Of a stretch of 64,000 nucleotides of DNA, positions 17,757 through 38,700 are shown piece by piece. Below the pieces are notes generated by a model that was given only the letters and a program-made list of their open reading frames with translations, had not been told where the DNA came from and did no database searches. A program made the position numbers and the translations under genes. Positions within the stretch are counted from its first letter, which is position 1. Each line of letters begins with the position of its first letter. Where the stretch lies: NCBI GenBank assembly GCA_036898135.1, contig CM072523.1, positions 34,235,242 through 34,299,241 on the forward strand. The letters run 5' to 3'. Origin of the DNA: Oncomelania hupensis. Lineage: Eukaryota > Mollusca > Gastropoda > Littorinimorpha > Pomatiopsidae.

Positions 17757-18499
17757 TAATGATACGAAATGAAGAGGGAAATGGAGATACCGAAAGAAAC
17801 AGGAAGGAAAGAAGAAAGATTAACGGAAATAAAAGATACAGTTAAACATAAGTAGACTAATTGAGGGTCATGAATTCCCAGTTTGATGGCTCAACATTGT
17901 CTGTGTAGTCATTTTGTCCCCTTTATGACAATAGGCCTAAATTCTAAACTCGGGACTACCATTGCAGCTGAAGCGCACGGCTTTGCGACTGCGTCTCGAG
18001 CTAATCTTGCGCTAAATCGAAAGTGTATCACCCTGTATGAGGCTGGGCGATGGTTCGGTCACCCGGAAATGCTAACACGGTAGAAGGTCGGCAAAGACTT
18101 TGATATATAAAGACATGCCATGAGGCCCACTTCAACAGAGTTTACATGTAAAACAGCGATCCTAGCGGTAGAACTGTTTCTATGTCAAGGGAGGTAATAC
18201 GCGTTCAATAAACAACTGTCGGCAAGGTCTACAGTCGATGCAAAAGCTCTTTTATTTCACAGTTTTCTTTGTTTTGCGTAATTAAAATAAATAAATAAAT
18301 AAATAAAAGTAGTTTGATATATTAAAATATATACTACTTTAAAAACAGTCAAGCTGATCTCATGCTGATAAACAAAAGAAGTAAGTTTGCATGCTACTTT
18401 CCTACTTTGATAAGTTCAGCATGCCCCTGCTATCATATTATTTTATCTGGAATATTATCTTTCGTAACAAGAGATCCGTAGGATCTCATCTTTGATATG

Positions 18500-18863: not shown

Positions 18864-18869
18864 CAGATA
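18864..18869. repeat. Polinton target duplication, left
   Basis: CAGATA, identical to 32071-32076. Six-base duplications are the hallmark of Maverick/Polinton integration. Confidence 0.9.
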
Positions 18870-19029
18870 AGAGATAGCAATAATGAGCGTAAAGCGCCTC
18901 ATGTTTTTCTGACACCCTTTTACTGCAATTTATGGCTGTTTTATGAGCTTTTAAAAGGCGTGCCAAAGCACTCTGGGAATCCGGCATTTGCTAAATATAA
19001 TGTATATTCGTATATCTTGCGTCTTTGGT
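18870..19029 (+). repeat. Polinton terminal inverted repeat, left
   Basis: The first 16 bases (AGAGATAGCAATAATG) match the reverse complement of the right end exactly. The next 45-60 bp are diverged. About 100 bp ending in GCGTCTTTGGT match again with few differences. Confidence 0.9.
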
Positions 19030-20750
19030 CTCCCCATCAACTCCAAAACTTAGCCAGTTATTTAGTTATTAGTCAAAACTTATTTAAAAACTTAGAAATA
19101 AAACTTAGAAAAAATACCTTACTTAGAAAGTAGAAAACTTACAGAAAACTTACTTAGAAAACTTAAAAAAAAACTTACTACTGAAATTGGAAATTTTTAC
19201 AAAAACCGGTGGTAGCACTTCCCGCTTGGACTCTCTCCCTAACTTGGTGGAGTGGGACGGACCCCTCGACCTTTTGCACGCATCTCCCACTCCACCAAGT
19301 GAGCCCAAGCGTTGTGGCATGTGTTGTCTGTCATCAAACCCCAAATGGGGAATCTCTACGAGACGAAATTAGAGAAACCCACGGAGGTGTACTGACTGAA
19401 CTTTGGCTGCGAGTCGGACAGTTGGATTAAGTAGGAGGCTCCAAGGACACTGCGCGCATCCTCCAGTCTTACCCAATGTCATGCAACCATTCGTTCTTGC
19501 GTTCAATATCTGTTTACTTGTTGCCTGAGGCTTGACAATTGGATTAAGTAGGAAGGGATCGAGAGTTAGCGTGCACCTTCCAGTCTTATCCATTGTCATG
19601 GCAATTTTTAACATGTATCCAAGCCACTTGCCACTTTGTACACTGTGTCTATTATTGCAATAGGACAGACATTTGGCCTTAATGCCTTAGCAAATTCAAC
19701 ACATGCCACAGAAGTGACTAACCACACCGAAAATCTATACTTCCTTTTTTCTTTATATCCCCATCCAGATCGCTCATAAAAGAAGATTGGGCTTGGGAAA
19801 TTACATTCAACAAACCAGCATTAATATTCGTTATTCTAAATGTACAATTCTAAATAATACACCATTAAGTGCGGCAATCTTTATTACATATTGTTCATAT
19901 TAATTTTTAGTGTGTAACAAATAGATATATAAATAAAAATTTATATTAAAGCATGTGTTTCCCATTTACTAGCTGTAAGTTAAACCAAGGGAAATAATTT
20001 GTGTGTATTTTAAACATGCATTAAGCATGTGATCCAGTTGAAAAACAGAATCGGAAATTCCCCTTTACTAGACCAGAGGAAATAATTTGTGTACAGGAAT
20101 ATTTGTGTGCTTTCTCTGTGTGAATGTAAAATCCTTAGTAAGTTTTTTGCCTTTGCTTAGATATATAAAAAGAAATTTATATTAAGCATGTGATCCAGTT
20201 GAAAACAGCAAATAGAAATTTATATTAAGCATGTGATCCAGTTAAAAACAGAACCTGGAATTCCCTTTGCTAGGGGCAGTCTGAAATAATCAATATTCTT
20301 GGCCTAAGCCCAGTTTATTCAATCGGGAATTCCCGCAAACATTAATGTTACAACCTTATACAGATTCAAATGTAATACAGATTCAAATGTAGAGTTTAAG
20401 ACAACAACTGAAACAGCAAATAGAAATTTATATTAAGCATGTGATCCAATTAAAACAGAACCTGGAATTCCCTTTGCTAGGGGCAGTGTGAAATAATCAA
20501 TATTCTTGGCCTAAGCCCAGTTTATTCAATCGGGAATTCCCGCAAACATTAATGTTACATACAATCTTATACAGATTCAATATAAGCCCCATTCAGTTAA
20601 GGGAAGTAATAAAAACATTACTACGCATTCATAAGTAAAGTTGCGGTTGCTTCCCTTTGACTGTATTTGGTGATTTGAAGCCTAAAAATCCATTTTTTAA
20701 TTTAATTTAAAGTTTTGTTATCAGTATAAAAATGACGGACACAAAAAGTC
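19030..20750. other. Gene-less left arm of the Polinton with internal repeats
   Basis: 1.7 kb without coding signal where the polymerase front half should be. It has ACTTAGAAA-type repeats (19080-19180) and two diverged copies of a GACA(G/A)TTGGATTAAGTAGGA unit (about 19420 and 19535). Two near-identical 170-bp units lie at about 20207-20375 and 20410-20580, sharing GCATGTGATCCA and TTCTTGGCCTAAGCCCAG. Probably a replaced or deleted region. Confidence 0.7.
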
Positions 20751-20828
20751 TTTCGCAATCTCCTTTGTTTAAAGACATCTTTCAAACTTTACAACTCCCT
20801 ATTTTCTCATTATATTTCTTCGCCAGGA

Positions 20829-21341
20829 ATGAGTTGGGATGCTTTCTTAAAACTTAGCGGTTCTAAAATCGATCTCATAACTGACCAGGTAATGATGACA
20901 ATGATTGAGTCGGGCATTCGTGGAGGAATAAGTGTGGCAGCTCATAATTATTGCAAAGCCAACAATAAATACCTGAAGCACTATGACCCCTCGCAGAAAT
21001 CTAATTATATAATGTACTTTGACGCCAACAATTTATACGGTTGGGCAATGAGTGAGCTTTTACCGGTTTCAGATTTCAAATTACTTGTTAATCCAAACCC
21101 CGCAAACTTGACTTGGTTAAACAGTATTTTAAATCACCCTAAAGATCATACTATAGGGTTTATTGTCGAAGTTGACCTAGAGTATCCCAATGCTTTACAC
21201 GACCTACATAATGATTACCCATTAGCACCAGAAAGATTGCATGGTACGGACAAGCAACTTAAACTTATTCCCAACCTCTATAATAAATCTAATTACGTCT
21301 GTCACTACAGAAACCTGCAGTTCTACATCAGACAGGCATGA
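20829..21341 (+). pseudogene. Type B DNA polymerase remnant, first part
   Basis: Reads like the palm region of protein-primed viral/organellar family B polymerases: SWDAFLKL, then IRGGIS and the motif A block YFDANNLYGWAMS with the catalytic aspartate. The match begins a few codons before the first ATG, at an SPG-SWDA sequence, but no exonuclease domain is found upstream, so the N-terminal half is missing. The frame closes at 21341, while the protein continues in another frame from 21338. The two frames overlap by four bases (ATGA). A degraded replication gene. Confidence 0.9.
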
Positions 21342-22270
21342 AGTGCACAGCGATTCACAAGCTTTTATTCTTTAAACAAACGAATGTCTTGGCCGGGTAC
21401 ATCAATAAAAACACAGAGCTTAGAAAACAAGCGCAATCTACGTTTGAAAAAGATTTCTTTAAGCTGCTGAATAACAGCTGTTTTGGTAAAACTATGGAGA
21501 ACCCATACAAGCGAAAAGACGTCAGGCTAATTACATCACCCAATCAAGCGATTAAATTAACATCTAAGCCTCAATACCTTGGTTACAAAGAGTTTCATGA
21601 CTCCCTGTACGCTGTTACCATGAAAACCACGCAAGTTAATCTAGACAAACCAGTGTTTATGGGGATGACTATTCTCGACCTTTCTAAATTATTAATGTTC
21701 GAATTTTACTACGATTACTTTAAACCTAAATACCCGGAGGCCAGAGTTTTATACACAGACACAGACTCCCTTATACTAGACATCCCTACTGAAGACATTT
21801 ATAAAGACTTAGAATCGGAACTGCAACATTACGATACTAGTGACTATCCTGAAACTCACCCTTTGTACAGCAAAGCAAACCAAAAGAAAATAGGTTTGAT
21901 GAAAGATGAAATGAACGGGAAACTTATTGAAGAATACGCAGGACTGCGATCTAAGCAGTACAGTATTAAACACGAATCGGGAGAATCTTCAAAAGCGAAA
22001 GGCACCCAAAAAGCTGCAATAAAAAACAGAGATATCAGGCATGAAAACTACTTGGAAGCCTTAGATGGAAAAGAAGTTAAACCATACCCTAACACAACTA
22101 TAAAGTCTAAAAACCATATAGTGTCCACTGCTGTGACGACCAAAAAAACATTATGCGCTAATGACACAAAGAGAATAAGAGTAACTAAGGAGTTCGCATA
22201 CGCTCTAGGCCACTATAAATTACAGGTAGAAACAGCGACTGCGACTACGAGTAAGGAGGAGGGCCCGTAA
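21338..22270 (+). pseudogene. Type B DNA polymerase remnant, second part (motifs B and C)
   Basis: 310 codons continuing the polymerase after the frame break: motif B (FKLLNNSCFGKTMEN) with its invariant lysine-side helix, and motif C (LYTDTDSLIL) with the two catalytic aspartates. It runs to a natural-looking C-terminus 24 bp before the convergent gene ending at 22295. Both catalytic motifs of this half are preserved. The frame break could be a single-base lesion or an assembly error; I did not test programmed shifting. Confidence 0.92.
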
Positions 22271-22294
22271 GGTTTGAATAAATGTTAACTGTAT

Positions 22295-22960
22295 TTATTC
22301 TGAAGCACTGAGCTTTTTCTTCAAAGCATCTAGCTGCTCTTTCCGTCCCAGTAGTCTCCCTTCCTCTATTAATTTTTTTTTAATTTCTTCAACATTAACA
22401 GGTGCAGACCTAGATTTAGATTGTATGTCGTGCTTCAACTTTTTATATTCTTCAAAATCTCGCTGGATAATTACAAACTCTTGGTCCTGAATCTGAGTGT
22501 CTTCTAGAGCTTTAGAAATTATTAAGTTCATGCTAGTAAGTTTAGCTATCGCCAGGCTAGAAATGAGGTCGTGTTTTTCTAGTTTCTTAGATACTTTAGT
22601 ATTAATTACACCAAGTAGAACTGACATAACTGAAGATAATCCGGCAGCCACTCCTAATCCAATACTAATTGGTATACCAATTCCAGTCACCAATAATCCC
22701 ACGCTGACCGCAGCTTCCGCTGCATTAATAACATTTAGACCAGTAGACACGTAATTTATTCCGCTATAAGCGCCGGAATACCTTCGTCTGCATCTAGAGT
22801 ACTTTTGGATATCTGATTCAATTTGAGTCCTAACTTTTCTTATTTCTTCCAGCCTGAACGTTTGAACATTAGTTAAGTCTAACGTTGGAGCACTGGGCTG
22901 TACAATTGGTTGTTCATCCACTACTGCTTCTACTATAGCAGGATACAATTTTGTCGTCAT
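22295..22960 (-). CDS. Polinton membrane/coiled-coil protein, unknown function
   Basis: 221 residues: a proline-rich start, a helical part (residues 30-60), a long glycine-rich hydrophobic region at about 72-119 that could span or insert into a membrane, and a charged coiled-coil C-terminal half. Such proteins recur next to the polymerase in invertebrate Polintons, from my recollection of the family; no function is established. By analogy it might help breach host membranes, but that is a guess. Confidence 0.8.
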   Translation of the reverse strand: MTTKLYPAIVEAVVDEQPIVQPSAPTLDLTNVQTFRLEEIRKVRTQIESDIQKYSRCRRRYSGAYSGINYVSTGLNVINAAEAAVSVGLLVTGIGIPISIGLGVAAGLSSVMSVLLGVINTKVSKKLEKHDLISSLAIAKLTSMNLIISKALEDTQIQDQEFVIIQRDFEEYKKLKHDIQSKSRSAPVNVEEIKKKLIEEGRLLGRKEQLDALKKKLSASE

Positions 22961-22995
22961 ATTTTTAGTGTGAAAAAAAAAAGGGTTAACAATAA

Positions 22996-23862
22996 TTAAC
23001 TTGATTTTAGTTTATTAGCAAAATATTCTATTTGACTATCAGAAAATATCTGATCGCTGAAATAAAATGCTAACAGATCTACGTTGTCTAGGCTAATTTG
23101 CGCTATTCTGTCAATAGGATTTGGAACAGGGACAAAAGTTATCTTGGGTGATGAAGTAAATACGGAAAACTGATTTTCATTATCTCTTTTCTTCATAAAT
23201 ACTGTAACTCGTCTGGGATCCTCATCTAAATCAACCCAACTTAGAGACACTTGCGGAATTACATTAAAATTTCTCTGCGTAGGCCTGTGAGCAATTATGT
23301 CCAGTACTATCATAGCTGTGCTACCTAGCTGTAAAGGAGGCTGCAGAATAACTCTAACATTTTTCCCTGCGGTTTCACGCTTATGTAAAACATAGCTGCT
23401 TTTTTTGTAGGCTTTGACTTCTATGGTTTCCCGATTGTTTTCATCCGGCACTAGACTAACTAACATAGGCCCGGCGTTAATAATTTTCTTAAATTTATTG
23501 TCTGGTCCCATAAAAGTGTAAGGGCTTTCGCACTTGAATTTAATAAGCCAATCTAATTCTGTGTCTATAGGTGTTAAAGACCAGGTATTTTCTCGTTTAG
23601 TAATAGCATACTTAAAATCGGGATCTACTTTACCGGCATAAAAATCCTTTAGCTGATCGATAGACGGTTTTTCTGGCAATACTGGCGGCGGCACTGCTTC
23701 AGGTACTGCCGGCACTAGCGCTCGTTTATAATATCCATTTTGTGTAAATTCGAAACCGTAAATAGACCCAACAATAGCATTCGCATCAAAGTCGATTGTG
23801 TCTGCTAAGTCTTTCAGTTCAATGGTAGGACAGGTTACTGGAATTTGAGGGCCGATTGACAT
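22996..23862 (-). CDS. Polinton protein of unknown function, possibly structural
   Basis: 288 residues without membrane segments: a proline-rich stretch near residues 50-70 (VPEAVPPPVLPEKPSI) followed by a beta-rich body. The start at 23862 is preceded by an AT-rich leader. It is co-oriented with the penton-like gene 19 bp away and the 221-residue gene, so the three may be expressed together. A virion component is plausible from position and composition only. Confidence 0.75.
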   Translation of the reverse strand: MSIGPQIPVTCPTIELKDLADTIDFDANAIVGSIYGFEFTQNGYYKRALVPAVPEAVPPPVLPEKPSIDQLKDFYAGKVDPDFKYAITKRENTWSLTPIDTELDWLIKFKCESPYTFMGPDNKFKKIINAGPMLVSLVPDENNRETIEVKAYKKSSYVLHKRETAGKNVRVILQPPLQLGSTAMIVLDIIAHRPTQRNFNVIPQVSLSWVDLDEDPRRVTVFMKKRDNENQFSVFTSSPKITFVPVPNPIDRIAQISLDNVDLLAFYFSDQIFSDSQIEYFANKLKSS

Positions 23863-23881
23863 TGTATTTTAAAATTAAACT

Positions 23882-24580
23882 TTATTTTATCTCAAGAATA
23901 ATTGTAAGATCTTCAAAGTCTACAATTTCGTTGTTTTGGTTAGTTATTTTGAAGCATAAACTAGTATGATAGTCCTGACTTAAGTGGCGTTTTTGAGGTA
24001 GAAATTTTAATGAAACTGGATCGCAGTAAGATTCTCTCTGAGTTGAGATTATCCTTAGCAATGTACTAGGAGTTCCGTTTACTAAGTTTTCCGATGTCTT
24101 CAGTTGATGAAGGTACACAAACAATCTATTATTAATTAACAAATTCATAGGGTTTGATCCAATAAATCTTATAGAACTGCCGACAGTGCTGGAGCTGTCA
24201 GATAAAGATAATTCATTGCCACGGAAACCTAATATTTCTGCCAGCTTTGGCGCAAGTGTAACGCTGGTAATGTCTTTATGCAGGGTTTTATGGAAAGTTA
24301 AAGTTACTATCAAGTTTGCAGGGTTCATTTTTGCTTCAATCGAATGAGGTTTAAACAATTCTTCAGTAAGTCTGCAGAAGTCATAATAGCCGGCATGAAT
24401 AAAGTGCCTTTTTTTATTAATCATTATCCAGTTGTTGTTTAGTTCATGACTAATATTTAACCATTTAACCGTGTAGAATATTTCGTGAAGGATTACGTTA
24501 AGGTCCCTGTTTTTGTTGTCAATAGGATGCTGAAGTTCAATGGGCACACCTGATTTTACAGATTCGAAAGTTACAAACAT
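23882..24580 (-). CDS. Penton-like minor capsid protein
   Basis: 232 residues. The layout fits Polinton minor capsid proteins, which form the pentameric vertices of icosahedral capsids with a jelly-roll fold: an N-terminal beta region with EIFYTVKWLNIS, the AGYYDFCRLTEEL block at residues 63-75, and LAPKLAEILGF at 109-119, all recurring positions in this family. It starts at 24580, with a 22-bp AT-rich spacer to the divergent gene starting at 24603. Identification rests on motif pattern, not on structure. Confidence 0.78.
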   Translation of the reverse strand: MFVTFESVKSGVPIELQHPIDNKNRDLNVILHEIFYTVKWLNISHELNNNWIMINKKRHFIHAGYYDFCRLTEELFKPHSIEAKMNPANLIVTLTFHKTLHKDITSVTLAPKLAEILGFRGNELSLSDSSSTVGSSIRFIGSNPMNLLINNRLFVYLHQLKTSENLVNGTPSTLLRIISTQRESYCDPVSLKFLPQKRHLSQDYHTSLCFKITNQNNEIVDFEDLTIILEIK

Positions 24581-24602
24581 ATTTTTTTTAAATATAATAA
24601 AA
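24581..24602. promoter_or_regulatory. Divergent AT-rich promoter spacer
   Basis: 22 bp between the starts of two divergent genes, containing TTTAAATATAA. The same 11-mer occurs in the divergent spacer at 27108-27141, suggesting a shared element-specific promoter motif. Confidence 0.5.
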
Positions 24603-25844
24603 ATGTACGCGCCTTATAAATATAACAAAGCTGCAAAGTATACTACAGGGCCTTATTATTACGAAAAAGCAGTCGACCTAACCAAGCTGACAATAGTTGT
24701 GGCAGCCAACGTCCATTTCGAAACTATCCCCCATAATATTTTTGATCATTACCTCAACCCAGACATTACGAGCGACTTTTTAGCTAACCAATGGCTAAAC
24801 AACGGGGGTATGCAGTTCTTTCAGAATCAAATTAATTTTGCCGTGTCATGCGCTACAACTGGTTGCGGAGTTTCTTACGTTCATCACCTTAATCACCCAG
24901 ATCCCATGTTGAAGTCTATTTATCTGTTCCATTTGTATTATCAAGTGAGGCGGGTGTTGTCTGAACTTCAGGCTCCGTTACCTACTGACAAAAACTTTAA
25001 TCCCTTTAACAACGGCTTTGACAAGAAAGCGTATCAAAGGTTGTGCAATGAATTCGGAATTGATACTAAAACAGACTTCAGACAAAAACTAGACCTCAAT
25101 CACGGAATGGGAACTTTATTTAGATACGCTGTAGGTAATTTATACACGGGGCCTTACGTACCTGGATTTACATCATTTAACCACAACAGCCAGGTTCCTT
25201 TACTGTATATCAGACAAAAACAAAGTGCAGCATACAGCACTTTTATATTAGACACATCAAACGGATTTACTCAAAGTGGGGTGGAAAGGCTGAATGAATC
25301 TATTCGTACGTATGCGTGGTGCATTTTGGGGTCTCAAGCACAAACACGAAGTAATATCATTGGGGAAGGAACTAGCTTCGATGCACAAAAGCAGTTTCTA
25401 GCCAACATTGAAGATTCTATTAATTCGGCAGTAGATTTGCCCGCGAGTATTAAAAGATATCAGGACACTTTAAAGTATGCTAGATCGAAAGTAGATTACG
25501 TAATAGGTTTAGGACTGTATATGTTGCCTTCAGACCTTCAGCTTAGGATAGGAACTATATCAAACTACAACAACAATATAGTGATTGCTGACCCTCAGTT
25601 TCATATAGGCTACAATCCTACAATAAATACAGTGAATACCGCGAATACAGTGAATACAGCAAATACGGTATTTACTGCTAGGCCTAATAATGAACCTTTA
25701 AGTTCGCCACCACTTCCAAGCCTACCAAGCCTACCAAGCTTGCCGGAACTGCAAATGCCGGTAATTGATCATGGGGTTTCACGTCTAGCGCTTACAGGGG
25801 GTTTATTGTTTGCTGGGTTAATTGGGATTTACTATTTTAAGTAA
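24603..25844 (+). CDS. Polinton protein with C-terminal membrane anchor, unknown
   Basis: 413 residues from the ATG at 24603, which directly follows the AT-rich spacer; an in-frame ATG further up lies inside the opposite gene and is less likely. A tyrosine-rich start, a soluble body with several cysteines and histidines, then low-complexity repeats (NTVNTANTV, LPSLPSLPSLP) and a hydrophobic tail (GLLFAGLIGIYYF). The last 27 bp overlap the 3' end of the convergent gene. Perhaps a membrane-associated virion or attachment protein; no known domain is recognised. Confidence 0.78.
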   Translation: MYAPYKYNKAAKYTTGPYYYEKAVDLTKLTIVVAANVHFETIPHNIFDHYLNPDITSDFLANQWLNNGGMQFFQNQINFAVSCATTGCGVSYVHHLNHPDPMLKSIYLFHLYYQVRRVLSELQAPLPTDKNFNPFNNGFDKKAYQRLCNEFGIDTKTDFRQKLDLNHGMGTLFRYAVGNLYTGPYVPGFTSFNHNSQVPLLYIRQKQSAAYSTFILDTSNGFTQSGVERLNESIRTYAWCILGSQAQTRSNIIGEGTSFDAQKQFLANIEDSINSAVDLPASIKRYQDTLKYARSKVDYVIGLGLYMLPSDLQLRIGTISNYNNNIVIADPQFHIGYNPTINTVNTANTVNTANTVFTARPNNEPLSSPPLPSLPSLPSLPELQMPVIDHGVSRLALTGGLLFAGLIGIYYFK

Positions 25845-27107
25845 CCAGAGTAATATTATTATAAACAAAGACCACAGATGCTCAGACGCCCAAACCACAA
25901 CTTTAGAAGCAGTATTAAATATCCATGAAAATACAGAACCTAATATTCCTGGAAGTGCGTCTACAAGTTTGTCACCTAGGCGTTTCAATAAGTTAGCTAT
26001 GCTTTGTAAAGTCTTTTTAATCCAGTCTTTAACCGGACTACCGCCAGGTCCACCAGGTCCGCCAGGTCCACCGCCACCGATGCCTACGGTTCTAGTCAGT
26101 GCTAAGACCAGTGTGCTTATTGTCATCCCAACAGCTGTAAGAATGCTAAATATTGTAACACCTTGCTCTCTGAACAGTGTTTGAATTCTTTCTGCAAGTG
26201 TAGTGTCTTCGTGTAAAATTTTATGCACCGTTTCTTTTATTCTGGCGAAATTAGTTATTAATTTTTCTCTGTTTATGGATAAGGCTTCTAGCCTCGCCGC
26301 GCGTTCTGTGTAAAGGTCTGCGAGCCGCTTTTGAATCAACTGTTTTACCTCAATGCTTAAGTTCGCGTCATCAGCTTCTGCTAGTTTATTTTTTTGTTTT
26401 TCTATATGTTTGTCGAGCTCACCGAGCTTGGCCAAATTCATCATTGTCTCCCCTCTCACAGATTGTAAAGCTTTATCTAAGCCCTGAAGTTCACGCAGTG
26501 GCAATAATGGCGTGTCATTGATAGTTTCCATAACCTGATCAATATTGGTGTCCTCATTTGTTTGTAAGGTTGTTAACTCTTTATTTACTTCTAATGCAGA
26601 ACTAGTTAAGTTAGTTAAGTCTTGTAGTTCTATTTCTGAACTTAACGATGCATCTATTCGTTGAAGTGAAGCTACTGCTTGGCGATGCAACGCTGGCACT
26701 CTATTATCGGAAAGCCCCAATGATCGTATTACAGTCACTGGGAGTTTAGTTTTCAAAGTAGACCATGCATAAAATTTGTCAGGATTCTTTAACATAGTTA
26801 ACTGTACTCTCACTTTTTTACCGGATACATTAGTGTTTATAAACAAGTGATTATTTTTGTCTAGTTCGAAGTCACCGGGACTAACATAATCAGGTAACTC
26901 GCGCCCGATGTAATTGTAAAATTTATTGATTTTTCTGGCTTTTTGGGTTTCAGTTACTTGACGTAATTCTTCTCCTATACTTAGCCTTGTTTGGCTCATG
27001 TCGTCTCCTACCATAGAAAGAAGTCTGCTGGTTGTGTCAACGTTGAGGTCTTCATTAGGCTCATTTGGTTTAAACACTTCATCAAGAGCTTCACCACCTG
27101 TTGCCAT
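25818..27107 (-). CDS. Polinton membrane protein with Gly-Pro linker
   Basis: 429 residues: an acidic start, a globular N-terminal part, a long helical/coiled-coil region (about 205-300), a hydrophobic segment at about 317-338, a GGGGPGGPGGPGG linker at 344-356, then an amphipathic and hydrophobic C-terminus (363-426). This architecture recurs in many cnidarian and mollusc Polinton-type elements, from recollection. Function is unestablished; size, abundance and membrane character suggest a capsid-interior or membrane-active protein. It starts opposite the major capsid gene across a 34-bp spacer. Confidence 0.82.
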   Translation of the reverse strand: MATGGEALDEVFKPNEPNEDLNVDTTSRLLSMVGDDMSQTRLSIGEELRQVTETQKARKINKFYNYIGRELPDYVSPGDFELDKNNHLFINTNVSGKKVRVQLTMLKNPDKFYAWSTLKTKLPVTVIRSLGLSDNRVPALHRQAVASLQRIDASLSSEIELQDLTNLTSSALEVNKELTTLQTNEDTNIDQVMETINDTPLLPLRELQGLDKALQSVRGETMMNLAKLGELDKHIEKQKNKLAEADDANLSIEVKQLIQKRLADLYTERAARLEALSINREKLITNFARIKETVHKILHEDTTLAERIQTLFREQGVTIFSILTAVGMTISTLVLALTRTVGIGGGGPGGPGGPGGSPVKDWIKKTLQSIANLLKRLGDKLVDALPGILGSVFSWIFNTASKVVVWASEHLWSLFIIILLWLLKIVNPN

Positions 27108-27141
27108 TTTTTAAATATAATTTTTTTTTATCGCATTAAAA
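27108..27141. promoter_or_regulatory. Divergent AT-rich promoter of the major capsid gene
   Basis: 34 bp with TTTAAATATAA, then a T-rich tract and ATTAAAA directly before the capsid ATG. It repeats the motif of the 24581-24602 spacer. Confidence 0.5.
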
Positions 27142-28419
27142 ATGCAAAGCTACGGAAACTTGTTAGACCCTACACGTCGATTGAGGACACCTTTAGGCAT
27201 CAAAGGTGAGAAAAGCACAATAATTATTACAAACAATCCAAGCAGCATAGAGCCTAATCAGCTACTAACCATAAGATTTCCAAATTTAGGTCCTGATGAT
27301 GTAATAGTTCCGGGCAGTCCTAAACTAGGATTTAAAATTAGTCTGAATTCTGAGGACGATCCTAACAGAACCGTAGTCAACAATCTAGGCAGAGCTATAA
27401 TTAAAAGAATGGTTATTAAACTTGATGGGCGAGAAATCCAAAGTATCGATGACGCCGGTGTTTTGTTTTGTTACACAGATCTGTGGCTGAGTAAATATGA
27501 AAGGGAAGATTTAGTTGGTCAGGGGATTCAAGCCGCCAATGTGGCAAAACTTCGAATCAAAGCTGGCGATGCTGTCGTTTCTAACAAAGGTGAAAATGCA
27601 TTAGCTGCTGTATACAAAAACAGGTTTTATTTTCCACTCGATTTTGAACTGCTACACAGTCATCTGCCATTTCATCAAGGTTCATTTAACGACAGGCTGT
27701 CTTACGAAATTATTTTCAATGATTATTCTCAAGTAGTAATTAGCTCTGACAATGATGCTAGGTATACAATTACAGACATCACGCTTGAATACGAAGTGGT
27801 CACTCACGCTGAACTCAGTAGGATGATCAGGGGCCAATATGACAAACTAGCAATTTATTATGATAGGATCGTTCGCTACAGACAATTTAATAAAGATTTA
27901 TTAGATGCACTATGGACCATCAACATAAATTCACCTGCTCGAAGTTTTAAAGGTGTACTGTTGTTGTTTGTGAAAGAATCTAATTACAATCGTGACAGCG
28001 AGAATTTTATCAATCCTAATATTTCAAAAGCGTCTGTTGTGATTGAAGGTAAACCTAATCAATTATTTGCTAATGGAATGATGGGATTTCAACAGTTTGA
28101 TGAGATTAGGAAAATCTTGGGTGGAGGTAGATTGAGGACTGACACTGTGGATTTGATTTCTAAAGATCTTCATTTGCATGACACAAGACTGCAAGATTAT
28201 CTCGTGAATAAGTTTGCGTTGTGGTTAGACTTTCGAACCATACCCACCAATGAACTTCATGGATCTGGAAGAAGAATTGAAAACGGAACAGATGGTATAA
28301 CAATTGAATTGCATAGGGAAGCAAGTGCAAGGTCAGAATCAGTTACAGTATACATGTATATAATTATGGATGCTCAGCTAAACATTGAAAATGGAAGATT
28401 AAAAGATTTAGTATATTAA
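27142..28419 (+). CDS. Major capsid protein, double jelly-roll (hexon-like)
   Basis: 425 residues matching the Polinton/adintovirus major capsid pattern: two successive beta-rich halves, with blocks such as VNNLGRAIIKRMVIKLDG (about residues 91-108), a LHSHLPFHQGSFNDRLSYEI segment between halves and a C-terminal VTVYMYIIMDAQL strand. Double jelly-roll proteins of this kind assemble as trimers into icosahedral shells. The frame is unbroken. It stops 3 bp before the packaging ATPase, so the two form a pair on the same strand. Confidence 0.92.
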   Translation: MQSYGNLLDPTRRLRTPLGIKGEKSTIIITNNPSSIEPNQLLTIRFPNLGPDDVIVPGSPKLGFKISLNSEDDPNRTVVNNLGRAIIKRMVIKLDGREIQSIDDAGVLFCYTDLWLSKYEREDLVGQGIQAANVAKLRIKAGDAVVSNKGENALAAVYKNRFYFPLDFELLHSHLPFHQGSFNDRLSYEIIFNDYSQVVISSDNDARYTITDITLEYEVVTHAELSRMIRGQYDKLAIYYDRIVRYRQFNKDLLDALWTININSPARSFKGVLLLFVKESNYNRDSENFINPNISKASVVIEGKPNQLFANGMMGFQQFDEIRKILGGGRLRTDTVDLISKDLHLHDTRLQDYLVNKFALWLDFRTIPTNELHGSGRRIENGTDGITIELHREASARSESVTVYMYIIMDAQLNIENGRLKDLVY

Positions 28420-28422
28420 AAA

Positions 28423-29034
28423 ATGACCTCTTTGTTACCTCGTGATCCTCATTGCGGAATGATCGTTGGTATGACGTCATGCGGAAAGACTGTCTTTGTT
28501 CTGGATTTGTTAGAAAAATATTACGCAGGACACTTTGATTATATAGTAATTTTTTGCCCAACTATTCAATATAATAAAACCTACTTAGATCGTAAGTATG
28601 TCTGGACAGATGAAAATATCTTTGTTGTAAATACCAATGGCAAGCTCAATGAGTATTTAACGTATTTTTATAACCTGTTTGAGAATGAGGGTAATACGTT
28701 ATTCTTAATCGATGATTGCAGTGCAGAAAAAGATATTGTATTAAAACGGAACATATTGAGCAAGCTGGCTTTCAGTGGACGCCATGTGAAAATTAGTGTC
28801 TGGTTAATCACGCAGAAATTTAATTCAATATTAAAGGATTTTAGAGAACAAGTAAAATTCGTGTGCCTGTTTTATTGCAAAGATCGAGACAGCTTTGATA
28901 ACTGTTTAAAAGAAAATGACGTAATTGCATCAAAAGAGGAAAGAACTAAATTAAAAGAACAGCTAAAAAAAGGCAAGCACTTAAAATTATTATTAAAAAC
29001 TGACCAACCAACTGGCTATACAATACTTATGTAA
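28423..29034 (+). CDS. FtsK/HerA-family genome-packaging ATPase
   Basis: 203 residues, the usual compact size for Polinton packaging ATPases (poxvirus A32-like). Walker A is GMTSCGKT at residues 16-23 and Walker B is NTLFLIDDCS at 91-100. A later ITQKFNSILKDFRE block fits the sensor region. It would pump DNA into preformed capsids. It starts 3 bp after the capsid stop and ends before a duplicated 70-bp spacer. All catalytic residues are present. Confidence 0.93.
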   Translation: MTSLLPRDPHCGMIVGMTSCGKTVFVLDLLEKYYAGHFDYIVIFCPTIQYNKTYLDRKYVWTDENIFVVNTNGKLNEYLTYFYNLFENEGNTLFLIDDCSAEKDIVLKRNILSKLAFSGRHVKISVWLITQKFNSILKDFREQVKFVCLFYCKDRDSFDNCLKENDVIASKEERTKLKEQLKKGKHLKLLLKTDQPTGYTILM

Positions 29035-29190
29035 GTAAGTAAGTTCTTTTATAATTTAATTATTGTAAGTTATAAGTTTTTTTTTTAAAGTCGACTTAAT
29101 TAAGTTAGATGTAAGTAAGTAAGTTCTTTTATAATTTAATTATTGTAAGTTATAAGTTTTTTTAAAAGTCGACTTAATTAAGTTAGATGT
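29034..29190. repeat. Tandem duplication in the spacer after the packaging ATPase
   Basis: A unit of about 75 bp beginning GTAAGTAAGTAAGTTCTTTT and ending TTAATTAAGTTAGAT occurs twice in a row with only a small length change in a T run. Confidence 0.85.
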
Positions 29191-29252
29191 AAGTCACTAA
29201 GTCAAAAAAAAAGGGTTGAAGGTAAGTAATAGTGGTGATGATTATAGTTCAT

Positions 29253-30218
29253 TTATCTTAATGGCTCTGTGTCTGGTGGAACAATCTGAAGTTCTTCTTT
29301 TACAAAGTTTCTTTGTGGTGTTCTACGATCGCTTCTCGGTCTTAAATAATATACAGGCGGATCAGTAGATAATGCTCTGTCAACTTCATAAACGCTTAAT
29401 GACCAAATTGGGTCTGTAGCTCGCCTTCTAGTGTCATTAGCAACTTCTCCAGGCTGATAAAGGTATCTAACAGTTTTGTTCATCAAAGTTAGATCTGGCT
29501 GACCAGGCTTTGAAACGGTAACAACAATCTGTTTCTTTTTAATAGCCTCAACTGGTTTTAATCCTGTAACTCTGGCTGGTTCTGAATTCATTTCCCTTAA
29601 AACTCGAGGCAGCCTTAAAACCCATTCTGTATTAGGGGTTTCAGTAAAGAGTTCCTTTGAATACTGATAAGTGAATAATCTTTCTGCCAGTTGCCGATTA
29701 AAGTTTTCTACAATGCCTTGTGATCTGTGCAATTCAACAACTCCTCTTCTAACAGTTACATTATGTTTTAACAAAAGCTGGTTAACAGCTCCTTTGAATT
29801 CAGACCCTTCATCGCATTGAATAAGTCTAGGGAACCTTAGAGGCCCTCTTGAATAAATCGCATTTAAGGCTTGAGCGACCTCAGCAGAATTTTTAGTCCT
29901 AAGAGCATGTGCGTCTTTAAACCGGGTAGCTATATCAATAACAGTAAGGGCATACCTGTATTTCTTTCTATATATTTTGTCATGGGGAAGATATAACAAA
30001 TCTATTTGATGCGTGTCATTTGGTCTGGAGTTTTCAAATTTTGGTCTTATTATTTTCTTCGGGGGTGGAAGATAGATTTGCCATACAGCTTGCTTCGATA
30101 ACCATTGTTTAACTACGTTTTCTGACAAGCCAGTCTTTTCTACTAGTTTATTAACTGCCGTCATCCCTTTCCAATATCCGGATTGAGAATAATATAATCT
30201 AGACAAACGTGAAGTCAT
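29253..30218 (-). CDS. Retroviral-type (rve) integrase
   Basis: 321 residues. The DDE core has D73 (HQID), D136 (QCDEGSEF) and E171 (GIVENFNR), with 34 residues between the last two as in retroviral-type integrases. The N-terminal 45 residues contain a helix-turn-helix-like segment (AVNKLVEKTGLSENVVKQWL) in place of a clear HHCC zinc finger. The C-terminus (about 260-321) has a beta-rich tail. This enzyme inserts the element and makes the 6-bp duplication. All catalytic residues are intact. Confidence 0.95.
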   Translation of the reverse strand: MTSRLSRLYYSQSGYWKGMTAVNKLVEKTGLSENVVKQWLSKQAVWQIYLPPPKKIIRPKFENSRPNDTHQIDLLYLPHDKIYRKKYRYALTVIDIATRFKDAHALRTKNSAEVAQALNAIYSRGPLRFPRLIQCDEGSEFKGAVNQLLLKHNVTVRRGVVELHRSQGIVENFNRQLAERLFTYQYSKELFTETPNTEWVLRLPRVLREMNSEPARVTGLKPVEAIKKKQIVVTVSKPGQPDLTLMNKTVRYLYQPGEVANDTRRRATDPIWSLSVYEVDRALSTDPPVYYLRPRSDRRTPQRNFVKEELQIVPPDTEPLR

Positions 30219-30221
30219 ATT

Positions 30222-30647
30222 TTATTTAGATTTATATTTTTGTTTAACGAGGTAATAAACTACTGTTATTCCAAACACAATTAAAATTAATTCTCCGGTC
30301 TCTGACATTGTAAATGCAATGTTAGGTGTGTAGTAATCAGATAACACTGGCTGCTTTAATGAAGGTAGTGTTGTGCCGGTGAATAAATAATATTGGTGCA
30401 AAGCTTCATCAACGTCTTCGAATGTTTTATCAGCATGACCTTCTTCTTTCAATCTTGTATTAACAAAATCAAGCTGCATTAGTCTGTTTTTCTCGTATTC
30501 GGCCTGATCTTGTTGTAATTTTTCCATTGCTAAGTTATGCCGTTTTGATTCTTCTTTACTGTCCAGTTTTGAAAACAAATAATTTGACCCTGAAAAGGCT
30601 AAGGCGTTGACAGCAGCAGAACCAAGCACCATTGCAGCACCAGCCAT
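30222..30647 (-). CDS. Polinton small membrane protein
   Basis: 141 residues: a small hydrophobic start (AGAAMVLGSAAVNALAF), a charged helical middle and a C-terminal transmembrane segment (LILIVFGITVVYYLV) ending in lysines. It stops 3 bp before the integrase start on the same strand. Function unknown. Confidence 0.78.
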   Translation of the reverse strand: MAGAAMVLGSAAVNALAFSGSNYLFSKLDSKEESKRHNLAMEKLQQDQAEYEKNRLMQLDFVNTRLKEEGHADKTFEDVDEALHQYYLFTGTTLPSLKQPVLSDYYTPNIAFTMSETGELILIVFGITVVYYLVKQKYKSK

Positions 30648-30683
30648 TTTTTAATTTAGTTTTTTATTTTATTTGTATTTAAA

Positions 30684-31211
30684 ATGAATTGTGATGACTT
30701 GTTAATGCAAGAAGCTATTAATGTCACAGGTACTGGTGTTGACAACGAGAAAAAAGACAGGCTGGTTGCATTAGTAGCTTCCGGAAAGTCAAAGTATTAT
30801 CTCGGTGTTGACTTAACTACTGAACAAGTGCAAAGACTGAGGCCTGAAGAGATCATTATATTACATAATAAATATGATAAAGTTCTCGGCGCTTTAATGG
30901 TTAAAAGTTTAGGGCGTTCGATTGTGAAGTTATATACCAAAGCTGTGTCGGCCTTTGTTACTTTAGATTGTGAGAATGATTTATTTGATGATTTGATTAA
31001 AGATCCAGTTATTGTTAATGGGATTAGTGAGGCATCAAGAAATTTGTATTATAAGTTTGGAAGCTTGTTGACCCCATTTTCAGCCGGGCTAATTACTTTT
31101 CAACACATAAATTTCTCTGCTATTAAAAATGGACTCTTCCAATCCGGAGATGGAGAAGGAGACGGAGGTGAAGAATTCAGAGAATCAACAGAACCCAGTG
31201 ACAGTCACTAA
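30684..31211 (+). CDS. Polinton protein of unknown function
   Basis: 175 residues, mostly helical, with blocks SKYYLGVDLTTEQV and SLGRSIVKLYTK. No catalytic motif is visible. It overlaps the next gene (starting 31129) by 83 bp in another frame, a compact virus-like arrangement. It is divergent from the 141-residue gene across a 36-bp AT-rich spacer. Confidence 0.75.
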   Translation: MNCDDLLMQEAINVTGTGVDNEKKDRLVALVASGKSKYYLGVDLTTEQVQRLRPEEIIILHNKYDKVLGALMVKSLGRSIVKLYTKAVSAFVTLDCENDLFDDLIKDPVIVNGISEASRNLYYKFGSLLTPFSAGLITFQHINFSAIKNGLFQSGDGEGDGGEEFRESTEPSDSH

Positions 31212-31575
31212 ACAAAAGAGTTTGGGAAGAATTGCAGCTGGAAAGAAGTTAGCAGAATTTAACAGGTTACATAGATGGAACAGACAAACAAAAGCAAACA
31301 TATTAAGAAAAAAGGAATCACCAAAAGAAGAAACAATAATGCAACAAACATTAACAACAAATAAAGAAGAACCAATACAACCAATACAACCAGTACAATC
31401 TTCAAATAACATATATTATTTATGTATAGCCGGTGTAGTGGGTGCAAGTGGGTACATAATATATAAATACCGCCAAGGAAAAAAGAAACAGAAACCCTCA
31501 AAACCACTTGTAGAAAAAGAAATTGAATTATCTCCATCATTGAAGCCATCATTAGATGTGTTTTCAATGCAGTAA
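31129..31575 (+). CDS. Polinton basic membrane protein
   Basis: 148 residues: an acidic N-terminus, a basic block (QKSLGRIAAGKKLAEFNRLH) that could bind nucleic acid, a glutamine/proline stretch (PIQPIQPVQ), a transmembrane segment (YYLCIAGVVGASGYIIY) and a lysine-rich tail. Its start overlaps the end of the upstream frame. A DNA-condensing or virion membrane role is possible; no homologue is named with confidence. Confidence 0.72.
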   Translation: MDSSNPEMEKETEVKNSENQQNPVTVTKQKSLGRIAAGKKLAEFNRLHRWNRQTKANILRKKESPKEETIMQQTLTTNKEEPIQPIQPVQSSNNIYYLCIAGVVGASGYIIYKYRQGKKKQKPSKPLVEKEIELSPSLKPSLDVFSMQ

Positions 31576-31611
31576 TAATTTATTATTATTTTTTTTATTA
31601 TATATAAAAAA

Positions 31612-31848
31612 ATGAGTGTACCATATGAACAAACAATTGTAAATCTTGGATACCATAGTGTTGTCTTAGTGGGCTTAAATACAGCTTATGCCATGATTGC
31701 AAAATCTCTTTTAAAAATGAAACCTATTGAATTGGGGAAAATGGATCTTTCAGATGCTGGTAAACTGGTTGGTATCTTTTCATTATCGTTATTTACTCGG
31801 GACTATCTTGTTAAACAAAAGATCATTCCAGCAGATATTAATGTGTAA
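31612..31848 (+). CDS. Polinton small hydrophobic protein
   Basis: 78 residues with a hydrophobic segment at about 16-30 (VVLVGLNTAYAMIAK) and a second one near the end (LVGIFSLSLF). It follows an AT-rich leader (TATATAAAAAA before the ATG). It is the last gene before the right terminal repeat. Function unknown. Confidence 0.68.
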   Translation: MSVPYEQTIVNLGYHSVVLVGLNTAYAMIAKSLLKMKPIELGKMDLSDAGKLVGIFSLSLFTRDYLVKQKIIPADINV

Positions 31849-31899
31849 TGTTATACAACCATAATGTAGAAGGGTTGTAATTTTTTTTTTTTTTTTTTA

Positions 31900-32070
31900 A
31901 CCAAAGACGCAAGATATACGAATGTGTATTATATTTAGCAAATGCCGGATTCCCAGAGTGCTTTGGCGCGCTTTTTAAAAAGCTCATAAAACAGCCATTA
32001 TTTTGCAATAAAAAGCCTCCTTTAGTAACTCTATGAGCTTTGGGGTTCAGAGCCCATTATTGCTATCTCT
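31900..32070 (-). repeat. Polinton terminal inverted repeat, right
   Basis: The reverse complement starts AGAGATAGCAATAATG like the left end and ends with the GCGTCTTTGGT block at 31900. The middle is diverged from the left copy by substitutions and indels. Confidence 0.9.
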
Positions 32071-32076
32071 CAGATA
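32071..32076. repeat. Polinton target duplication, right
   Basis: CAGATA, identical to 18864-18869. Confidence 0.9.
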
Positions 32077-32827
32077 TACTTAGTCGATTTTATCAGTCAT
32101 TTATATAAATTTTCTTTTATTTGATGGTTTCGAAGTTTATCTGTATCTGATGGAAACAGCTTGTCAAGTATCGTTAATCTGTACTCAAAGATTACTGGCT
32201 TGAGACATCAAGACCTGAGCAGTTCTATTTTTTTCTGTGTGTAGGTGTGTGTGTGTGTGTGTTTGTTTTTCTATGAGCACCACCCCACAATGTGTGCCAC
32301 CTTGTCGTACTTTCTTTTTAGCGCGCGGCATTTTCCCAAGTGACGACAGTTATTTCGCTAGGTGGCGCTTCTCTAATATCGAAAGTAGCGAACTCCCGGA
32401 AGTGGGCCTCATGGCATGTCTTTATATATCAAGGTCTTTGAGGTCGGTGACAACAGTAGCATGGAGAAACAGAAACACGGCTTAAAACTGCTTATATCGC
32501 GCAAGTGTACCCACTGCTGCATTCATAAACAAAAGTTACATCATTATTGTTTTTCCGAAAGAACAACAACAACAACAACAAAAACACTAAAAAACAACAA
32601 CATTGACGTAAAATAACAAATGCGGGAGTCAATCACCATACTTCAACGTATAGGAAAGTAATTACCGTGCCGTCTACCAGCAGCGATCTCCCTGCCTTTA
32701 CACTACATGTGTGAGTTATAAAACTCAGAAGTGTGTTGAGAATGTACGAGTGTGCGTAACATACATTTGAGCCTGCATGTGGGTTATAGATCCACGCGCT
32801 TTAATTCCGATGTAGAAGTAAAGGTCG

Positions 32828-35705: not shown

Positions 35706-38700
35706 TTATATGCGACAGAACAAACCAACATCATGTAAAAATTGAAACAGATGTTGACCATTACATACTTTAAAAATCTCTTTGAAAGGTATGGAACCAA
35801 AATATGTTTCCCTTTTCTCAATCAAATCAGCACATTCAGACATAAAATGGCGAACAGAAAAAGATTGATCACATGCAAAGCACCATGGTGGTTCTTCTCC
35901 TTTTAAAAGGAAACTGTGGGTGACATAAGTATGCCCAATATGAAGGCGAGATAACACTGTTTCTTCTTTGCGAGTGGATGCAAAGTTAGGCAAAGAAGTG
36001 GACAAATCGGGAAGAATTTGAAATAATTTGTTGTTGACATGGTTAGACCAGTCAGTCTGCCACAGTCGTTTACAATAAGATCCAGTCATACAACGTAGGT
36101 CAGAGTAGGGCACAAACTGGAAAATCTCAGGAGGGAAATCGAGGTGTAGAGCATCTTTAGCCGCCCTGTCTACTGCAATATTGCCGCGGATGCCCATGTG
36201 ACCAGGGACCCACATAAAAACTATCTTTTTACCCTCAGAAATAAGTTGTGTATGGAGGTCATGGATCTCTGCCAGAAAAGGGTGTGATATCTTTCTCGTG
36301 GAAAGAGCCTGAAGTGCTGACAATGAATCAGACATGATTAAAAATGAGGTTCTTTTGGATTGATAAACTTGTTTCAGAGCTAAAAGAATTGCCTTGAGCT
36401 CAGCTGTATAAACAGAACAAAAATCAGGTAAACGCTGTTGCAAAGGCTGGTCTAAGTGTCTCCTGGAGACAGACGCAGCAGCAACTGAATCTCCTTTCTT
36501 TGACCCGTCTGTAAAAAGTTGTTCATATCCTGGGTATAAAGCACACTGTTCTAAATAAAGTTGGTTATATACGGTTTCGGATGTATTGTTTTTAAGGAAA
36601 GCGGACAACTGCCAATTAATGTTTGGGATACATAATTTCCATGGGGGGGCTTCAGTCCGAAGCTCATCGTCGTTGATGGAAGCAACATCAATGCCTGCTT
36701 TTTCCAGATGAGCTTGCATTCTGATGCCAAACGGAGGGATTGTGTTAGGTTTAGCTTCAAATTTCTGAACAAAATCTGGGTTGAAAACACAGTCATAAGC
36801 AGGGTTCATAGGATCAGTTTTTAATTTTAAATAGTAATTCATTGACAATTTTGTACGTCTCAGCTCCAGCGGGGGTTCGTTAGCTTCCACGTAAAGGCTT
36901 TCACAAGGGGAAGTGCGAAACGCACCCAAAGCAATGCGTAGTGCCTGATGGGCAACTGGATCTAGCATCTTAAGATAAGATTTTCTAGCAGAACCATAGA
37001 CAATGCAACCATAGTCTAACTTGGATCTAATTAAAGAACGATATAACAGCAATAAAGTTTTCTTGTCAGCACCCCAGTCTGTACCACTGATAACCTTGAG
37101 CAAATTGCAGGCCTGTTGACATTTTGTTTTCAAAATTTTCAGATGAGGAATGAAGGATAGCTTTTGATCAAAAATAACACCCAAAAATTTGACTTGTTGG
37201 ACTGCCTTTATTGGAGTTTTATTGAGGAGAATAGTAGGGTCTTGAATAATTCCCCGGTGCTGGGAAAAGTGAATACATTCAGTTTTTGCTTCAGAAAATT
37301 TAAAACCATTTTGTAAAACCCAGTCTTCAACGGCGTTGACACATAACTGTAGCTGACGTTCTGCAGATGCCAAAGTTTTACCTTTGGCTACCAATGCAAA
37401 ATCGTCGACAAATAAAGAATTCTCAATTCCCCGTTTAACGGAACGAACAATATTATTTATTTTAATATTAAACAGCAAGGGAGACAAGATGCTACCCTGA
37501 GGCACTCCCATCTCCTGTTCTCTCGTATCTGACAAAGATCCCCCAACCTTAACGTGAAAAATTCTGTCTGTTAGAAAATTGGATATAAACAGAGGTAAAT
37601 GTCCCTTCAAACCCATTTCTTGTAAATCTGAAAGAATGCCATATTTCCATGTGGTATCATAAGCTTTTTCCAAATCAAACATGATGGCAACGACATGTTC
37701 ACCCTGGACGAACGCGTTACGGATAAAAGTTTCCAGTCGCACCAGGTGGTCAACAGTACTTCGACCACTTCGAAAGCCACACTGAGTGTTGGATAAAATA
37801 TTATTTGTTTCTAGATACCACAGTAAGCGAGAATAAACCATTCTTTCTAGCGTCTTGCATAAGCAAGACGTTAGGGCTATTGGTCTATAGTTTGTCGGGT
37901 TAGTATGGTCTTTGCCAGGTTTAGGGATGGGTACAATAATGGCCTTTCTCCAGGAGGGAGGAAAGGTGCCAGTGATCCAGAGCTGATTGAAGATGTCCAG
38001 CAGTTGAGACCGTGAGTACCTTGTTAAATGTCTGAGAAATTGATAATGTACATCATCCGGTCCAACTGCTGAATCTGCACTTTTGTTAATTGCATCGTCA
38101 AGCTCGACTAATGAAAACGGAAGGTTGTAATCTTCAGAATTATCGGAGGTAAAATTTAACTGTTGTTTTTCTTTACGGGTTTTAACTGTTTGAAAAGGGA
38201 CAGAATAATTTTCAGAGGAAGAATTTGCAGCAAAAGAAGAAGCCAAAAGATCAGCTACTAATTTTTTATCTCCGATTATGTCACCCTGCACAGTAAGGCA
38301 TGGGCTCACCTGTTTGTTACTTTTATTTTTGAGTTTGCGGACTACTTTCCACACCTTCGACAGTTTCGCTTTCGAATTAAGCATGGAGGCGAAACCTCTC
38401 CACGATTCTCTTCTCTTTTGTTTGAAGAGCTGTCGGCATTGCGCTCGCAAACGTTGGTGGTTTTGTTTATTGTCAGTGCTTGGGTGTAAAAACATAGTTC
38501 TTAAAGCTTTTTTACGAGCTTGCTGAAGTTTTCTACATTCATCGTCAAACCAGGGTTTTTTAAGTGTGTGAGGGTTTGACGAAGTTTGCGGAATGGACTC
38601 CTTGGCACTGTTAATAACTATGTCAGTATAAAGCTGTATTGGATCTAAGGCATTTGAAAATTCCTGTTTCTTAGCACGTAGCTGGGCCTCAGACAGGTTA

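What the first reader, a model, noticed from the sequence alone, without database searches (positions are those of the whole stretch)
18870..32070. A Polinton with all capsid, packaging and integration genes open but replication gene broken
The major and minor capsid genes, packaging ATPase, integrase and seven accessory genes appear unbroken, while the polymerase lost its front half and has a frame break. That pattern suggests this copy could still make particle proteins or be mobilised by another copy's polymerase, or that the capsid genes are kept under selection. The 6-bp duplication is perfect, so the insertion is not very old.
Basis: partly seen in the sequence, partly recalled or inferred. 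Interest (0 to 1): 0.9.

Follow-up and report, generated by a model that had tools for sequence, protein, structure and literature searches.

The report
Damaged young copy of bursting Polinton
This is one recently inserted copy, with a damaged replication gene, of a virus-like transposon that has spread to many places in this animal's genome, where dozens of sister copies still have that gene uninterrupted.

Summary
The Polinton at 18870-32070 is real: exact 6-bp target duplication, inverted ends, and an uninterrupted double-jelly-roll capsid protein, packaging ATPase and DDE integrase. The polymerase is damaged differently from the description: its first ~24 codons survive, ~1.88 kb (codons ~25-651) is deleted, and a second frame break lies near 21335. 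A minor capsid gene and a protease were not recognised.

The host genome (1.45 Gb) holds about 200 close relatives among the places scored, on contigs C1-C17 and some small ones. Of 128 scored polymerase places, 58 keep a full-length frame, and none of the other 127 has this copy's 325-aa frame. Polymerase variants shared between copies are as constrained (omega-like 0.08) as those of ATPase (0.07) and integrase (0.11). So the break looks like a private accident in a young copy; it does not show capsid genes kept while replication is abandoned. Shared variants are constrained and private ones relaxed in the best-sampled genes; end types and one accessory cassette vary. This fits recent multiplication through functional genomes. 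Caveat: copies were scored or chosen by similarity to this one. No particle or transcript evidence was examined.

The parts
18864..18869 (.). left target-site duplication CAGATA
   Evidence: exact match to 32071-32076
18870..19036 (+). left terminal inverted repeat (starts AGAGATAGC)
   Evidence: related ends in sister copies
20203..20580 (.). 207-bp tandem duplication in the left non-coding region
20732..20803 (+). start of polymerase gene, ~24 codons retained
   Evidence: matches residues 1-24 of a sister ORF
20804..21338 (+). polymerase piece 1 (residues ~652-827 of sister), after the deletion junction
21338..22270 (+). polymerase piece 2 (residues ~829-1146), after the second frame break near 21335
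   Evidence: 7,500 homologues among 7,996 scored candidates; alignment
22295..22960 (-). ORF221, hydrophobic middle and charged C-terminus (by eye), function unknown
   Evidence: no family hit above cut-off
22996..23862 (-). ORF288, candidate minor capsid protein (unverified), fast evolving
23882..24580 (-). ORF232, candidate minor virion protein (unverified), fast evolving
   Evidence: 4 homologues, best 92%
24606..25844 (+). ORF412, hydrophobic C-terminal segment (by eye), function unknown
25818..27107 (-). ORF429, Gly-rich with hydrophobic C-terminus (by eye), function unknown
27142..28419 (+). major capsid protein, double jelly roll
28423..29034 (+). packaging ATPase (Pox_A32 family, Walker A and B)
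29029..29202 (.). 80-bp tandem repeat x2.2 between ATPase and integrase
29253..30218 (-). rve-type DDE integrase
30222..30647 (-). ORF141, function unknown, constrained in sisters
30684..31211 (+). ORF175, function unknown
31129..31575 (+). ORF148, function unknown, fast evolving
31612..31848 (+). ORF78, small ORF conserved in sisters
31891..32070 (-). right terminal inverted repeat
32071..32076 (.). right target-site duplication CAGATA

Best explanation
This is a young copy of a Polinton/Maverick family that has recently multiplied to a few hundred copies in this genome. The full-length elements encode a ~1,147-aa B-type polymerase, an rve integrase, a double-jelly-roll capsid protein and a packaging ATPase. 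By analogy with known Polintons (inferred) they copy themselves by protein-primed replication outside the chromosome, may package, and insert by the integrase with a 5-6 bp duplication. This copy inserted recently and carries two lesions in its polymerase, not seen in the other copies read: a 1.88-kb internal deletion and a frame break. Its other genes are open mainly because the copy is young. Shown: anatomy, many close copies, intact sister polymerase frames, constraint on shared variants, relaxation of private ones in the best-sampled genes. Inferred: the replication and particle steps, and whether the deletion came just before or after insertion.
For: Ends, TSD and gene set. Own genome: 99 scored MCP places of 1,344 candidates (the window's own included), each full-length, without stops, >=99% identical. 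128 scored polymerase places of 1,345 (own included), 58 with a frame >=1,140 aa. About 200 places in the two lists together, 27 in both. Of 20 sisters read at the polymerase, 5 have one full frame, and none shows this copy's junction. Private divergence of this copy 4 in ~3.1 kb. Shared-variant omega-like ratios: Pol 0.08, ATPase 0.07, INT 0.11; single-copy ones 0.44, 0.31, 0.16. Shared vs single in Pol p 1e-16.
Against: Only the best-scoring places were scored, so MCP intactness (99 of 99) and its lack of amino-acid change (45 synonymous, 0 non-synonymous shared variants) come from a sample ranked by MCP identity. Sisters for the other genes were all reached through their MCP, which favours young copies. 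Relaxation of private variants is not seen in ORF221 and ORF175 (lower), nor clearly in ORF288, ORF232 and INT. ORF221 is whole in only 2 of 9 sisters. Counting all genes, this copy has 22 private variants in 9.2 kb against fewer sisters, which makes its open frames a ~4% event without selection. Some one-base frame breaks may be assembly errors. No transcripts, particles or extrachromosomal DNA were examined. No protease was found. Both sisters with readable ends have 5-bp, not 6-bp, duplications.
Confidence: 0.82

Rival explanations
1. The deletion arose before insertion: a polymerase-defective genome was replicated and inserted by enzymes of a full sister.
For: Full sisters exist to supply the enzymes. 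Many scored places have short polymerase frames (66 of 128 under 1,000 aa), and three places on three contigs share a 473-aa frame.
Against: None of the other 127 scored places has this copy's 325-aa frame, and none of 20 sister stretches shows its junction, three of them unreadable there. So there is no sign that it was propagated. The repeated frame lengths are not beyond chance (p about 0.1). The genome search for the junction did not complete.
Confidence: 0.12
2. Capsid genes of this copy are kept by the host after insertion (exaptation) while the polymerase decays.
For: All twelve non-polymerase frames are open, a 4-18% event without selection.
Against: The copy is young, the same frames are open in many other copies, single-copy variants in Pol, ATPase and ORF429 are relaxed, and the genes sit in a complete mobile element with both ends.
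Confidence: 0.03
3. The polymerase damage is an assembly error and the copy is whole.
For: Frame breaks are common in the sister copies, and there are tandem repeats close by.
Against: The deletion has a clean junction against a sister, and several sisters from the same assembly carry the segment.
Confidence: 0.05

Closest known systems
Polinton/Maverick transposons (polintoviruses)
   Same: TIRs, 6-bp TSD here, B-type polymerase, rve integrase, packaging ATPase, double-jelly-roll capsid protein (gene list from PMC4028283; text parts 1 and 2 of 4 read).
   Different: No protease recognised (identifiable in 74% of the Polintons in PMC4028283); penton not identified; two sisters with 5-bp duplications; this copy is 13.2 kb against 15-20 kb stated there.
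Vertebrate Mavericks with broken polymerase (axolotl, tuatara, pike; PMC8097293: abstract and passages, section 8, part 1 of section 14)
   Same: Many copies with fragmented polymerase; strong purifying selection on core genes, with higher ratios on some terminal branches.
   Different: In those hosts all elements seemed defective, and the largest number of intact copies in one vertebrate genome was 38. Here 58 scored places keep the polymerase frame (whether all other genes are intact in each was not tested).
13-kb Maverick burst in the snail Potamopyrgus antipodarum (PMC12596079, passages seen)
   Same: Recent burst: hundreds more copies of a ~13-kb element than in its congeners, ~3.5 Mb.
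   Different: Gene constraint, recombination and polymerase status were not in the passages seen; sequence relation not tested.
Adintoviruses (PMC11071296, passages seen)
   Same: PolB, rve integrase and a hexon-like capsid protein.
   Different: OTU-like polymerase N-terminus not tested; no chromodomain hit in the integrase, which is inconclusive.

Membership tests
Polinton/Maverick | terminal inverted repeats | tested here: met
   18870-19036 / 31891-32070; related ends in sisters
Polinton/Maverick | 6-bp target-site duplication | tested here: met
   CAGATA exact in the window copy; both sisters with readable ends show 5 bp
Polinton/Maverick | protein-primed B-type DNA polymerase | tested here: met
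   homologues include PF03175-annotated proteins, though Pfam itself gave no hit to the pieces; full frame in 58 of 128 scored places, damaged in this copy; protein priming not testable
Polinton/Maverick | rve-family integrase | tested here: met
   PF00665 E 5.7e-10; D, D, E present
Polinton/Maverick | FtsK/A32-type packaging ATPase | tested here: met
   PF04665 E 1.1e-14; Walker A and B
Polinton/Maverick | double-jelly-roll major capsid protein | tested here: met
   Foldseek matches to PBCV-1 and mavirus MCPs, E about 1e-14 to 1e-11, TM (query) about 0.5-0.58; sequence search of PDB found none
Polinton/Maverick | single-jelly-roll penton (minor capsid) protein | tested here: inconclusive
   candidates ORF288 and ORF232 without family hits (ORF288 also 59); ORF232 model pLDDT 44
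Polinton/Maverick | adenovirus-like cysteine protease | tested here: inconclusive
   no hit in Pfam or NCBIfam; a diverged one could be missed
Adintovirus | PolB with N-terminal OTU-like domain | not tested
   sister polymerase N-terminus was not scanned
Adintovirus | rve integrase with C-terminal chromodomain | tested here: inconclusive
   no chromodomain hit in Pfam for the 321-aa integrase

The most novel reading that the evidence does not exclude
This family is a currently replicating, virion-forming Polinton virus of this animal. Many genomes co-replicate outside the chromosome and exchange sequence before reinserting, so that copies mix ends, accessory cassette and gene variants while capsid and replication proteins are held nearly constant by repeated passage through particles.
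Probability: 0.27. Interest if true: 0.88.

Novelty: new member of a known kind. Interest (0 to 1): 0.57.

Why it matters
Polintons carry virion genes, but whether they make particles is open (PMC4028283 calls finding actively reproducing ones an important experimental challenge). This genome holds many recent copies, dozens with an uninterrupted polymerase, whose shared variants show purifying selection on replication, packaging and integration genes together. That makes the question testable in one animal. It also warns that a single copy with open capsid genes and a broken polymerase says little by itself.

Tried and rejected
Relatives in IMG/VR: none; in GTDB genomes: one degenerate piece in an archaeal MAG (L001). 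Capsid kept, polymerase abandoned: rejected. TIR divergence as an age clock: rejected. Arms at ~9% difference would imply about 58 lesions in the other genes, and both arm types occur at either end of sisters. My first frame-break counter reported one-base gaps at gene ends even in MCPs that one search shows open, and used a wrong integrase frame; I replaced it. The conserved-column scan stopped with an error on polymerase piece 1. It gave piece 2 one change in 70 conserved columns (rank 58 of 121) but MCP five in 102 (rank 110 of 121, the less conserved side). P0001 has the same count, so I read that as a trait of the lineage, not decay of this copy. Recurrent polymerase frame lengths as proof of trans-mobilised lineages: not beyond chance. 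The extra cassette as a hidden protease: it holds an open frame of 98-148 residues in the five copies printed, not identified. Odds changed on checking: novel case 0.30 to 0.27, best explanation 0.83 to 0.82, exaptation 0.02 to 0.03 (exchange evidence mixed; all-gene age estimate higher).
Full report
What is there. The element runs from 18870 to 32070, with an exact 6-bp duplication CAGATA on both sides. Its ends are inverted repeats of about 170 bp that begin AGAGATAGC. They match in an outer 19 nt and an inner stretch (30 and 81 nt at 90 and 94%), with a non-matching segment between. Inside are a polymerase remnant, twelve other open frames without internal stops, and short tandem repeats.

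Gene identities. The 425-aa protein at 27142-28419 has 812 homologues, the best at 97%. Its predicted structure (pLDDT 74) matches PBCV-1, iridovirus and mavirus major capsid proteins and viral capsid proteins in BFVD. The 203-aa protein is an A32-type ATPase and the 321-aa protein an rve integrase. ORF232 has 4 homologues and a model too poor to use. ORF288, ORF221, ORF412, ORF429 and the right-end ORFs have no convincing family hit.

How the polymerase is damaged. With 120 listed homologues, similarity reaches left only to 20748 (216 matched stretches) and there is a change of frame near 21335. Against a natural sister frame of 1,147 residues the window copy has residues 1-24, 652-827 and 829-1146. 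The junction is clean at 20803/20804 and 1,880 bp is missing. The lost part should include the exonuclease domain, and motifs A, B and C remain in the pieces (domain and motif names recalled; residues seen). Piece 2 has 1 change in 70 conserved columns, rank 58 of 121, so it is not long dead.

Sister copies. The genome has 1.45 Gb in 428 contigs; C1-C17 make up at least 1.38 Gb (C6 from positions). The MCP search scored 99 of 1,344 candidates, the window's own included. All 99 were full-length, without stops and at least 99% identical. The polymerase piece search scored 128 of 1,345; 58 have an open frame of 1,140 aa or more, 4 of 1,000-1,139 and 66 less. The lists share 27 copies, 14 with the full polymerase frame, and together name up to 200 places, with copies on each of C1-C17. 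A few may be two hits in one rearranged element. A capture-recapture figure is about 470, rough because both lists are ranked by similarity to this copy. These fractions need not hold for the unscored copies.

Is the break special? In 20 sisters chosen through their MCP, 5 have the polymerase in one full frame (L033, L040, L041, L046, L051), one more spans it with one stop (L037), and the rest are broken, rearranged or only partly in the fetched stretch. None shows residues 1-24 joined to 652 as here; in L034, L035 and L050 that part could not be read. In 29 sisters, ORF429 is whole in 22 and the ATPase in 22 (my count; L015 counted although its match ends one residue short). The integrase is only partly in those stretches and was not counted. 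In a third set of 10, one had no matching gene (L058). Of the 9 left, ORF288 was whole in 6, ORF232 in 7, ORF412 in 7 (two end slightly short) and ORF221 in only 2, with three copies sharing a break at residue 195. In six more, the integrase was whole in 5, ORF148 in 5, and ORF141, ORF175 and ORF78 in 6. Lesions per kb: Pol 0.40, ATPase 0.45, ORF288 0.47, ORF232 0.36, ORF429 0.21, ORF412 0.20, INT 0.19, ORF221 2.27. The polymerase breaks often mainly because it is long; ORF221 is the outlier.

Selection. Variants found in two or more copies mostly arose before the last insertions; variants found in one copy are mostly later. One search used the window plus 29 sisters (ORF429, MCP, ATPase), 19 (Pol; one of the 20 fell to an 85% identity filter), 9 (ORF288, ORF232, ORF412), 7 (ORF221) or 6 (right end). 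Shared-variant ratios (non-synonymous over synonymous, per site) are Pol 0.08, ATPase 0.07, INT 0.11, ORF141 0.05, ORF221 0.13, ORF175 0.16, ORF412 0.17, ORF429 0.20, ORF232 0.36, ORF288 0.41, ORF148 0.42; ORF78 has three shared variants, all synonymous. Single-copy ratios are higher for Pol 0.44, ATPase 0.31, ORF429 0.59, ORF412 0.34, ORF141 0.27 and ORF148 0.59. They are little different for INT 0.16, ORF288 0.47 and ORF232 0.43, and lower for ORF221 0.09 and ORF175 0.09. The contrast is strong for Pol (p 1e-16), ATPase (p 0.004) and ORF429 (p 0.0007). Pol does not differ from ATPase or INT, and is more constrained than ORF429, ORF288, ORF232 and ORF148; MCP is more constrained than Pol, but in a biased sample. 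MCP has 45 shared synonymous and no shared non-synonymous variants, with mean dS 0.058, and those 30 copies rank first by MCP identity, so its constraint is overstated. Two further hints on MCP point different ways. The 11 residues differing from the nearest outside relative avoid the 117 most conserved columns (permutation p 0.014 on mean conservation). But the lineage, P0001 included, departs from 5 of 102 conserved columns, more than most of 121 sequences. Purifying selection across core genes is what PMC8097293 reports for cyprinid Mavericks.

Age. Against 29 sisters this copy has 4 private variants in ~3.1 kb. At that age about 1.7 lesions are expected in its other genes, and none is an 18% event. 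All twelve genes give 22 private variants in 9.2 kb, but most of these against only 6-9 sisters, which inflates the count; then none is a 4% event. Both use an assumed 0.1 frameshifts per substitution. If the end arms had diverged since insertion, about 58 lesions would be expected. Instead the two end types occur at either end in sisters: the left type at the right ends of L062, L066, L070 and L072, the right type at the right ends of L064 and L068 and at the left ends of L073 and L050.

Exchange between copies. Over 1.9 kb of capsid and ATPase genes in 30 copies, 1,149 of 2,145 pairs of informative sites show all four combinations, the minimum number of recombination events is 39, and association falls slightly with distance (r -0.09; 4 of 2,000 shuffles as extreme). 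Against simple crossing-over, the share of incompatible pairs does not rise with distance (0.56 under 200 bp, 0.42 at 1.8 kb). Short-tract conversion or repeated mutation at the same sites may therefore explain much of it. Nine of 29 sisters carry an extra ~0.5-0.6-kb cassette beside the integrase with an ORF of up to ~148 residues. Mixed end types and the movable cassette favour exchange among co-replicating genomes; gene conversion between inserted copies is not excluded.

Place among known things. It meets the tested defining features of Polintons; penton and protease are inconclusive. Copies with broken polymerase are common in vertebrate Mavericks (PMC8097293), and a recent 13-kb Maverick burst is described in a snail (PMC12596079, passages). 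I did not identify the host or test whether that element is related. So this copy is ordinary; the family's scale and youth, with many intact polymerase frames, are the interesting part.

Noticed in passing
window 35706-40909 (-): Two long open frames (1,247 and 489 aa) overlapping by about 10 bp that look like an apparently uninterrupted two-ORF non-LTR retrotransposon (identity judged by eye, not scanned).
   Followed up: no
window 18092-18133 and 32399-32440: A 42-bp inverted repeat, 98% matching, lies outside both ends of the Polinton.
   Followed up: no
window 53822-54515: A 41-bp tandem repeat of about 17 copies.
   Followed up: no
L070/L071 and L072/L073: Two sister copies show 5-bp target duplications (AGGAC, GGAGG) where the window copy shows 6 bp.
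   Followed up: partly
L004, L005, L007, L009, L010, L012, L014, L017, L021, about 3.6-4.2 kb: Extra cassette with an ORF of up to ~148 residues between ATPase and integrase in 9 of 29 sisters; it shares a 22-bp match with the polymerase start region.
   Followed up: partly
L052-L061, ORF221: ORF221 is whole in only 2 of 9 sisters, and three copies share a frame break at residue 195, perhaps an alternative C-terminus.
   Followed up: no
G000:C158:140654-200858: Four MCP copies within about 60 kb on one small contig, perhaps nested or tandem elements.
   Followed up: no
L001: A Candidatus Diapherotrites MAG contig carries degenerate Polinton capsid, ATPase-like and polymerase pieces (read by eye), perhaps contamination.
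   Followed up: partly
G000:C1, C5, C6: Three polymerase places share a 473-aa open frame, which could be one inherited lesion; not beyond chance.
   Followed up: partly
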